This document shows positions 48,401 to 53,808 of a stretch of DNA of 64,000 bases, piece by piece (the first letter of the stretch is position 1; the number at the start of each line of letters is the position of its first letter). Both the position numbers and the translations under genes were made by a program. This stretch comes from Arctopsyche grandis (taxonomy: Eukaryota; Arthropoda; Insecta; Trichoptera; Hydropsychidae). The stretch covers positions 16,292,079 through 16,356,078 of the forward strand of contig NC_135356.1 in NCBI RefSeq assembly GCF_051622035.1, read 5' to 3'. The notes beneath the pieces are model-generated. The model was not told the origin of the DNA. It did not search any database and saw only the letters and a list, made by a program, of their open reading frames with translations.

Positions 48401-51400
48401 ATATATATATATATATATATATATATATATATATATATATATATATATATATATATATATATATATATGTATATATATTTTTTAGATCAATAAAAATGTT
48501 TTTGAATCATTTGTATGAGAAACTTTTTTCACTTCGACCACTACTTATAAAATATCCACTTATTGTAATTCAATAGAAATATTTATTATATATATATATA
48601 TATATATATATATATATATATATATATATATATATATATATATATATATATATATATATATATATATATATATATGTATATATATTTTTTAGATCAATAA
48701 AAATGTTTTTGAATCATTTGTATGAGAAACTTTTTTCACTTCGACCACTACTTATAAAATATCCACTTATTGTAATTCAATAGAAATATTTATTACATGA
48801 TGAATTGTTGGAACCATTTCTACACATGCATGAAAAGCGAGTGTCTATTATCTTTAACAGACATCAAATGTTTTGAAATATTATCGATAATACATTATTT
48901 CATTCTGAACAAAAATAAAGACCACACATTCCTCACCCTTCCACTCCACTATTAAGCAAAGAATGAGTTTTAAAATGTAAGGCAATCCCTGGAATTACCA
49001 TGATTGGAAATACGACGTACATAATTTGACCAATAAGCATTCATAATTTATAATAATACATGTATAAAATACGTACATAGTTTACCTGAAACCTAAAATT
49101 TATCTAAAACAATTTTGTAAATATGCATGTGCGATTTTCTAATTAGCTTGAGTCATTTATATTGAAGTCAGGCATATTCTAGTTAAAAAAAAAAGTAATT
49201 ACAATTTAACACTTGCCACACTGTGGTGGATAGTGAGTGACCAGGACTTGTATTATATTTTATTTTATATCTCAAAATATACTGAATGTAGTCTTTATAT
49301 TTTATGCATTCCCCATCAAAACACTTGTTAAATAGTGTTAATAAGGAATTGCCAGATATCATATTTTTGCAAAAGTGTAACAAAATGTAATTGATCTGAC
49401 CATTTTTTGCGATGGCTGTTATTAAGTAAATTTGTATGTATAAAAACAGTTAAATTGATTTTCAATCGAAAGTAGCCGTATATTTTGTATTTGGTGATAC
49501 CAGTTTCATAAAGATGCAGGAAATATTAAATCGTATGTATTTGACCAGTGATTAGATGAACAGGCATACACAAATGTAGAGAACCATACGAATACTTTAT
49601 GAAATGAACGGCACAATACATAACTAAATACAATACAATTAATAAATAAATAAGTAACAAAAGCCCCCCTGTTTAATTGACCGATACTTTCACGCACAAA
49701 ATCTGCATACCTGGAAGAGAGATTTTCGGTTTCATATCAAGATTACAGAAATCCTTATCATTACAACACTTTGTGGCACTGATTGGTTCTTCAATTTGAA
49801 TACTGCACCATATTGGAATGTCTTTCAGAATTAATCCTGAAGCTTTGTTCATACATCTACCGTAAACAAAATTCGTTTCATGTCTTACAAATAACATATA
49901 TCATATTATTGGGTGAACATTGACAATTGAAATTTTCTCCTATTGCCAAAAATTCAATAGTACTTACATATATAGTATGAATTTTTGGTGTACATGAGTT
50001 TGAAACAGTATTATACATATATACAATATATTATTAATGAAACATATTGATGGTAAATGTAAATTTCACACTTATGTTATTTTTGCACAAGAAAGAAGAA
50101 TAGACATGTTATTATTTTAACAGTATCACCGTAAGAGCATAGGTATAAAAAATCCTTCAGCCTTCAATTGAATAACTTTCGACCAGTTAAATGAATCCAC
50201 ATTGGTGTAAATAAATTATTGTCAAACCATATCCGTCACCGAAAAAACTAAAAAAAAACCTAAATACATCTAAATAAAATATTTTGAATACAGTCAGCTC
50301 TCATTTAAACATCAATAGAAACTATTTTTAAATATGTATGAATGTACATATCAAAAACTTCTTCTATTTATTTTTTTAATTACTGAAATTACAGTTGTGA
50401 ATTCGTTTAGAAATTATGACTTTGAATACAGATTTACGGTTCTTACTTGGAATTTTTTATTAATATGCACTATTCAATACAGATTATTTATTTAAGTCCA
50501 AGTTCCATTTTTATTACAACTGAGATTTCAACAGAATTCATAACTTCTTCGAATCTGTATCCATTAGAATCCGGCCACACCAACTGACTTGCGAGCAGCT
50601 CTGTAGGTGACTTTGTTACGCGAACAGACCAAATGTATCCAGTTGTATGGAGCATGCCATACTAGACAACTCACAAGTCGTAAAGTCAAGTCACCTGACG
50701 GTTCGGTCTGGTCATGGTGATTTTATTACCAAAGCAACCGTTATAAACCCTCAAAATGTATAGCATTGTATTGACGGGTGCCACACTCAGTGATTAGTTG
50801 CCGGCAATTCCATATTGAAAAAGCTATGAACACGTGTGACTATCGTCACATATTAAAAACTCTTAAAGAGAGTGGATTCATGGGGGCTTCTGGTTGCCCG
50901 AGTTGGGTGACCCAAGAGTGACCACGCTTGGACAACAAAGCCACTCGCAATTTACCTAATGTAGCCTGGCTCTTAGAGAAATATCAAAAATAAATCTTTT
51001 ATACGATAAAGGAGAGTCGACTGTACGTGTTATGAGAAAGACATGCAAGCTCGGCAACAAATTACTAATACTGGAATTAGAAAATACACATAATTAAATT
51101 CAAGCTAGTATATATGTATGTATAAAAAAATATAAACATATAATATAGCGTAAGAATTCCACTAAGAATGTTGAACTGTGCAGGGGTGTTGAGCTTTGAA
51201 AATAAAAGGTTTGCGGGGGCGGCTATTTATTACCTTCCGGTTTCATATGTAGCTGTAATTTAAGGTCCTTGTTGCACATATGCTCCTTGCAACAACGTAT
51301 GACCACGGTATCGTTGCGATTTGGGGTGGTCAAGCATATGATGGGATTGTCAATAGGATGCATCATGTTCCTATCCACACACCTGCATTGCACGCCACAC

Positions 51401-53808: not shown

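What the first reader, a model, noticed from the sequence alone, without database searches (positions are those of the whole stretch)
49711..53808. Three mutually exclusive baboon ectodomain exons enforced by reading frame
Exons at 53808-53669, 51382-51234 and 49856-49711 (minus) all encode the same C-x14/15-C ... CC-x4/5-CN segment and share entry and exit phases. Their lengths (140, 146, 149) are each 2 mod 3, so inclusion of exactly one keeps the kinase in frame; none or two breaks it. In Drosophila, baboon is known to use three alternative exon-4 variants for different activin-class ligands. Here the three differ strongly: the distal one has a 6-residue loop where the others have 12-13, implying distinct ligand specificity.
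Basis: partly seen in the sequence, partly recalled or inferred. Interest (0 to 1): 0.85.

Follow-up and report, generated by a model that had tools for sequence, protein, structure and literature searches.

The report
Swappable receptor exons in insect baboon
An insect hormone-like receptor gene (baboon) carries three interchangeable copies of the exon that shapes its ligand-binding head, as in fruit flies, and the same genome also holds an old intron-free copy of the gene that looks fixed on one of the three versions.

Summary
Three exons (v1 53808-53669, v2 51382-51234, v3 49856-49711, minus strand; 140, 149, 146 nt) each complete the same activin-receptor domain after a shared exon found outside the window. 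All enter and leave in the same phase. With exactly one variant the frame runs through GS box and kinase to the stop; the other five combinations stop early. The exon pattern occurs nowhere else in 84 kb. This is baboon with its mutually exclusive fourth exon, known in Drosophila: a new member of a known kind. "Enforced by reading frame" overstates it: frame can only discard wrong products; what chooses the exon is unknown. A low-power docking/selector scan found nothing above shuffles. New here: chromosome C11 carries an intact intronless baboon gene with a v2-like ectodomain; its kinase is identical at 271 of 326 residues while silent sites are saturated, so it looks old and conserved. It suggests that shared exon, a v2-type exon and the next exon were once spliced together. 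No RNA was examined; ligand specificity was not tested.

The parts
53669..53808 (-). alternative exon v1 (140 nt, short 6-residue loop; N-G-T sequon near its end)
51234..51382 (-). alternative exon v2 (149 nt, 13-residue loop with N-D-T sequon; strongest Pfam match of the three; the version most like the intronless C11 copy)
49711..49856 (-). alternative exon v3 (146 nt, 12-residue loop)
43520..43762 (-). next shared exon: transmembrane segment, juxtamembrane, first part of GS box
43439..43519 (-). 81-nt intron inside the GS box, a multiple of three and free of stops in the reading frame
43208..43438 (-). shared exon: rest of GS box, start of kinase
41529..41717 (-). shared kinase exon, first residues (D)NGTWTQLWL
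41161..41333 (-). shared kinase exon with HRDLKSKN and the DLG motif
39608..39847 (-). shared kinase exon
39406..39531 (-). last coding exon and stop codon
53657..53668 (-). tandem 5' splice site of v1 (CAG|gtacag|gtacac): a second donor 6 nt further would add two codons and keep the phase
   Evidence: sequence only; use not shown

Best explanation
This is the insect baboon gene, an activin/TGF-beta type I receptor. One shared exon (outside the window, at 67650-67539 if window numbering is continued) codes the first half of the ligand-binding domain. Exactly one of v1, v2, v3 supplies the second half, and the rest of the gene is shared. Shown from sequence: exon identity, phases, the one-and-only-one frame rule, an open receptor frame for each choice. 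Inferred: cells choose one exon through regulated recognition of three weak acceptor sites by factors not identified here; transcripts with none or more than one variant meet an early stop and are probably degraded by NMD; the choice changes the ligand surface and so which activin-class ligand the cell answers to. A second, intronless baboon gene on chromosome C11 carries a v2-like ectodomain and is best explained as an old retrocopy of a transcript in which a v2-type exon stood alone between the shared exons.
For: Each single-variant product is open to the stop (483, 486, 485 residues from the shared exon); none, v1+v2, v1+v3, v2+v3 and the triple stop after 41, 89, 85, 88 and 89 residues. 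The split entry codon is Arg in all three (CG+G, CG+G, CG+A) and the exit codon Gly in all three. Each shared-exon + variant ectodomain passes Pfam PF01064's cut-off of 20.9 bits (29.4, 47.7, 34.5 bits), and the v1 product has GS box and kinase. Best solved-structure match of each of the three is TGF-beta receptor type-1. Acceptors of v1-v3 have few pyrimidines (7, 7, 9 of 17) against 8-12 in the seven other acceptors of the gene (one-sided rank test p=0.03). C11 copy: 562-codon open frame, 498 aa from the putative start, PF01064, PF08515 and PF00069 over cut-off; the 7 parental intron positions of the aligned part are joined without intron; its variant part matches v2 at 55.8 bits against 27.4 (v1) and 19.7 (v3). 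Drosophila babo: mutually exclusive exons 4a/b/c (PMC7371420, PMC12124520, passages; PMC6071210, passages and section 3.1).
Against: No RNA was examined, so exclusivity in transcripts is not shown; v1's acceptor is poor and its use is unproven. v1's best structure match ends at residue 56, before the CC box, and in the exon-by-exon genome search with PF01064 only the shared exon and v2 were reported, not v1 or v3. The acceptor comparison rests on 3 against 7 sites of one gene. The C11 copy would also be expected if it arose before the exon was duplicated and v2 is the oldest version; it shows joining of a v2-type exon, not exclusivity. No relatives of this genome were available to test conservation of any exon.
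Confidence: 0.9

Rival explanations
1. Exclusivity is set by competing RNA pairing, one docking site with a selector beside each variant exon, as in Dscam exon 6 or 14-3-3zeta.
For: PMC6071210 (passages; section 3.1 read) calls competing RNA structure the major mechanism of such splicing, lists babo among the fly clusters of three exons, and states as its hypothesis that clusters in other genes tend to use it.
Against: Ungapped complementarity scan: five candidate docking regions against the upstream or downstream 300 nt of the three exons, nine of ten combinations run; the best triple pairing was reached by 5 to 56 of 60 shuffles. The lowest counts (5 and 7 of 60) were beside the exon at 43762, in AT-rich sequence. 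Power is low: one genome, no conservation, bulged helices missed, no positive control run. An earlier duplexfold version timed out.
Confidence: 0.35
2. One of the three exons, most likely v1, is a relic that is no longer used, so the gene makes two forms.
For: v1 has the lowest U count before its acceptor (3 of 17) and the lowest Pfam score of the three.
Against: v1 keeps an open frame, its five cysteines, the boundary codons and its own donor.
Confidence: 0.1
3. The C11 gene is not a retrocopy of a spliced v2 transcript of this gene but an older sister that lost its introns another way or before exon duplication, and v2 resembles it only because both kept the ancestral sequence.
For: Silent sites between the two kinases are saturated (pS 0.875), so the event is old. 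Flanks were only glanced at and showed me no long poly-A. v2 and the C11 ectodomain are also those nearest TGF-beta receptor type-1 (38.3 and 42.1 bits).
Against: The seven intron positions in the aligned part are missing at once and the gene lies on another chromosome, the usual mark of retroposition.
Confidence: 0.35

Closest known systems
Drosophila melanogaster baboon exons 4a/4b/4c (Babo-A, Babo-B, Babo-C)
   Same: Same receptor class, three mutually exclusive exons for the ligand-binding domain, a Cys box (CCKSDFCN in the fly), and a last base g that completes a shared codon (PMC12124520, PMC7371420, passages).
   Different: Another animal (species not named to me); the shared exit codon is Gly here and Asp in the fly (PMC12124520, passage). 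Which variant matches A, B or C was not determined.
Other Drosophila clusters of three mutually exclusive exons, such as 14-3-3zeta, listed with babo in PMC6071210
   Same: Three tandem alternative exons, one used.
   Different: For 14-3-3zeta competing RNA structures are reported (PMC6071210, section 3.1); here none was found in a weak scan.
Paralogous baboon genes of Anopheles gambiae (PMC3863949, one passage seen)
   Same: More than one baboon-class gene in one insect.
   Different: Whether the mosquito copies are intronless or locked to one ectodomain is not said in the passage that I saw.

Membership tests
Activin/TGF-beta type I receptor, baboon class | Activin-receptor ectodomain, GS box and kinase in one protein | tested here: met
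   PF01064, PF08515, PF00069 over cut-off in the v1 product; PF01064 over cut-off with v2 and v3
Activin/TGF-beta type I receptor, baboon class | L45 loop of the activin/TGF-beta type (label recalled) | tested here: met
   [12 protein letters not shown] in the window gene and the C11 copy; the C12 gene has IKGTGSWTQM and the C3 gene SDMTSKHGCTQ, which I recall as tkv-like and sax-like
Mutually exclusive exon cluster | Tandem homologous exons with identical phases | tested here: met
Mutually exclusive exon cluster | Exactly one exon per mature transcript | not testable with these tools
   No RNA data. Frame logic agrees; the C11 copy shows one v2-type exon alone
Docking/selector (competing RNA pairing) class | One docking site complementary to a selector near each exon | tested here: inconclusive
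   Nothing above shuffles in a low-power single-genome scan
Drosophila Babo-A/B/C orthology | One-to-one match of v1-v3 to 4a, 4b, 4c | not tested
   No Drosophila protein sequence at hand
Retrogene (C11 copy) | Parental introns absent, other chromosome, intact frame | tested here: met
Retrogene (C11 copy) | Poly-A remnant and target-site duplication | not tested
   Flanks were printed and glanced at, not searched

The most novel reading that the evidence does not exclude
In this insect the choice of baboon ectodomain has partly moved from splicing to gene duplication: an old retroposed copy, locked to the v2-type ectodomain and kept by purifying selection, gives a fourth activin receptor that no splicing decision can switch. 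It would let one compare a regulated and an unregulated version of the same receptor in one animal.
Probability: 0.5. Interest if true: 0.55.

Novelty: new member of a known kind. Interest (0 to 1): 0.42.

Why it matters
It finds a well-known fly arrangement, receptor specificity set by a three-way exon choice, in another genome, with the frame rule worked out in full. The intronless copy is the newer part: a natural cDNA-like record of a v2-type form and a possible case of one splice form escaping into its own gene. [quoted passage not shown]

Tried and rejected
Chance origin of the exons: rejected. Fourth variant exon: a looser pattern over window plus L009 found one further stretch, at 47921 on the minus strand, without the CN end, and no full match on the plus strand; not pursued. 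Shared flanking motif: an 83% match of 30 nt lies downstream of v2 and v3 (E 0.004); by the sequence it is AT-rich, tatacata-like, so I did not count it. Docking/selector scan: first version timed out, second negative. Assignment to Babo-A/B/C from primer letters in PMC7371420: hints conflicted, dropped. Relatives by a genome-contig scan: 2 loci, in records titled as bacteria, 27% identity, of no use. AlphaFold was not used, because the ectodomain is joined from two exons and the tool takes letter-for-letter translations only. Naming the species: not possible; CCTAA repeats at the starts of C1, C2, C3 and C5 (few in C1) and none in short contigs C14 and C15; 475.7 Mb; about 13 long contigs, inferred from lengths shown and places. 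Literature: ten searches; the rows listed (some lists were cut, e.g. 10 of 2,196, 10 of 31) showed no paper on a baboon retrogene or on baboon exon-4 variants outside Drosophila. The library holds open papers only, and I recall, without having seen it here, a report of Babo isoforms in a lady beetle. Of papers I saw passages of PMC12124520, PMC7371420, PMC2687788, PMC3863949, PMC11195991, PMC6071210 (plus its section 3.1), PMC10703416, PMC7083856, PMC5599232, PMC3654919, PMC10767106 and PMC4218986; none was read whole.

Full report
Setting. The window is G000:C2:16292079-16356078 in a 475.7 Mb genome. CCTAA telomere-like repeats stand at the four long-contig starts looked at, few of them in C1.

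Gene model. The three exons are where the finding puts them. The shared upstream exon that they complete lies outside the window in locus L009, 67650-67539 if window numbering is continued, and reads LMCHCDVCPHTNNSCETDGYCFTSTTLERGAVTYSY plus the first two bases of an Arg codon. Downstream: exons 43762-43520, 43438-43208, 41717-41529, 41333-41161, 39847-39608 and 39531-39406 with the stop. The first coding exon or exons (signal peptide) were not located.

Frame logic. With v1, v2 or v3 alone the frame runs 483, 486 or 485 residues from the shared exon to the stop. With none it stops after 41 residues; v1+v2 after 89, v1+v3 after 85, v2+v3 after 88, all three after 89. So 3 of 8 combinations are productive. 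The triple sums to 0 mod 3 and fails only because v2 is read out of frame, a point the finding leaves out. The first base of v3 is A where v1 and v2 have G, yet the split codon is Arg in all three; the exit codon is Gly in all three.

Protein. Each shared-exon + variant ectodomain passes Pfam Activin_recp's cut-off (29.4, 47.7, 34.5 against 20.9 bits); the full v1 product also has GS motif and kinase. Taken exon by exon in the genome search, only the shared exon (22.1 bits) and v2 (20.6, 20.9 with its neighbours) were reported in this gene. Best solved-structure match for all three ectodomains is TGF-beta receptor type-1, v2 strongest (38.3 bits; v3 33.6; v1 29.5, ending at residue 56). In the alignments the TGFBR1 segment IPRDRPFVC is FPPDAPYLC in v1, HPIDNPIIC in v2 and ILKDIPIWC in v3. 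That this segment touches ligand and type II receptor is recalled, not looked up. The loop before CC is 6, 13, 12 residues. Different ligand preference is therefore plausible, not shown.

Chance. The exon pattern occurs at these three exons only in 84,000 bases, at none in 54,000 other bases (5,000 of them N, some telomere repeat) and in none of 30 Markov resamples.

Splice sites. Acceptors of v1, v2, v3 have 7, 7, 9 pyrimidines of 17 (U: 3, 5, 7); the seven other acceptors in the model have 8-12 (U: 6-12); one-sided rank tests give p 0.03 for each, on the same sites. Few sites, one gene: a hint of regulated recognition. v1 has a tandem donor 6 nt apart.

Docking and selector. Scan of the introns before and after the cluster against 300-nt flanks of the three exons, 60 dinucleotide shuffles each: the real best was reached by 42, 25, 25, 17, 56, 52, 5, 7 and 15 of 60 in the nine combinations run. 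Nothing stands out. The scan is ungapped, has no conservation to lean on and no positive control was run.

Second baboon gene. A genome search with the v2 product finds an uninterrupted match at C11:15020741-15022171, 72% over residues 1-485. It is a 562-codon open frame with a putative start giving 498 aa, without any of the seven introns that cut the aligned part of the window gene. Its ectodomain matches v2 (55.6% of 45 residues, 55.8 bits), far better than v1 (27.4 bits) or v3 (19.7), and shares RN-x-TV-x-IRCC with v2. From the GS box on, 271 of 326 residues are identical; by a Nei-Gojobori count of my own pS is 0.875 (saturated) and pN 0.108, which points to long purifying selection, though one pair of sequences cannot date it. 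The transmembrane part differs a good deal. Other type I receptors in the search: C12 (tkv-like, a single 426-codon open frame) and C3 (sax-like), by L45 loop (labels recalled). So two baboon-class loci are seen, in a search that scores only its best candidates.

Ligands. The TGF-beta family search gives 8 matches at 6 places. Of the five whose start was seen, three begin with the CC of the activin/TGF-beta class (class mark recalled): one nearest inhibin beta A, one nearest GDF11/GDF8, one not searched further (C6:16366800). Three activin-class ligands beside three variants is suggestive only.

Comparison. Drosophila babo has three mutually exclusive fourth exons with different ligand-binding domains (PMC7371420, PMC12124520, PMC11195991, passages) and is in the list of fly clusters with three exons (PMC6071210, section 3.1). 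Preferences Myo/Babo-A, Act-beta/Babo-B, Daw/Babo-C are reported as thought (PMC11195991, passage), but other papers put Act-beta on Babo-A (PMC5599232, PMC10767106, passages). In the fly the splicing mechanism is called unknown (PMC12124520, passage). Anopheles gambiae has baboon paralogs (PMC3863949, passage); Nasonia has one baboon and Apis was reported to lack it (PMC4218986, passages). The exon cluster here is thus a new member of a known kind. The listings of ten searches (open papers only, some lists cut) showed no paper on a locked intronless baboon copy.

Verdict. Observation confirmed; identity sound; the word 'enforced' too strong; ligand claim untested. The intronless C11 copy is the part worth following.

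Noticed in passing
G000:C11:15020735-15022423 (L028, minus): Intact intronless second baboon gene with a v2-like ectodomain; kinase 271 of 326 identical to the window gene, silent sites saturated.
   Followed up: yes
window 60062-57099, minus: A 988-codon open frame with a reverse transcriptase domain and an endonuclease match just under cut-off (23.2 against 24.5 bits), LINE-like, lies in the intron before v1 on the same strand as baboon.
   Followed up: partly
window 53668-53657, minus: Tandem donor at v1 (gtacag gtacac); use of the second would add two codons in frame.
   Followed up: no
window 43519-43439, minus: 81-nt intron inside the GS box is a multiple of three and has no stop in frame, so retention would insert 27 residues in the GS box without breaking the frame.
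   Followed up: no
G000:C12:13889418-13890626 (L031): A tkv-like type I receptor with a 426-codon uninterrupted frame from the end of the ectodomain through the kinase.
   Followed up: partly
window about 52010-51828: Long AT dinucleotide run in the intron between v1 and v2.
   Followed up: no
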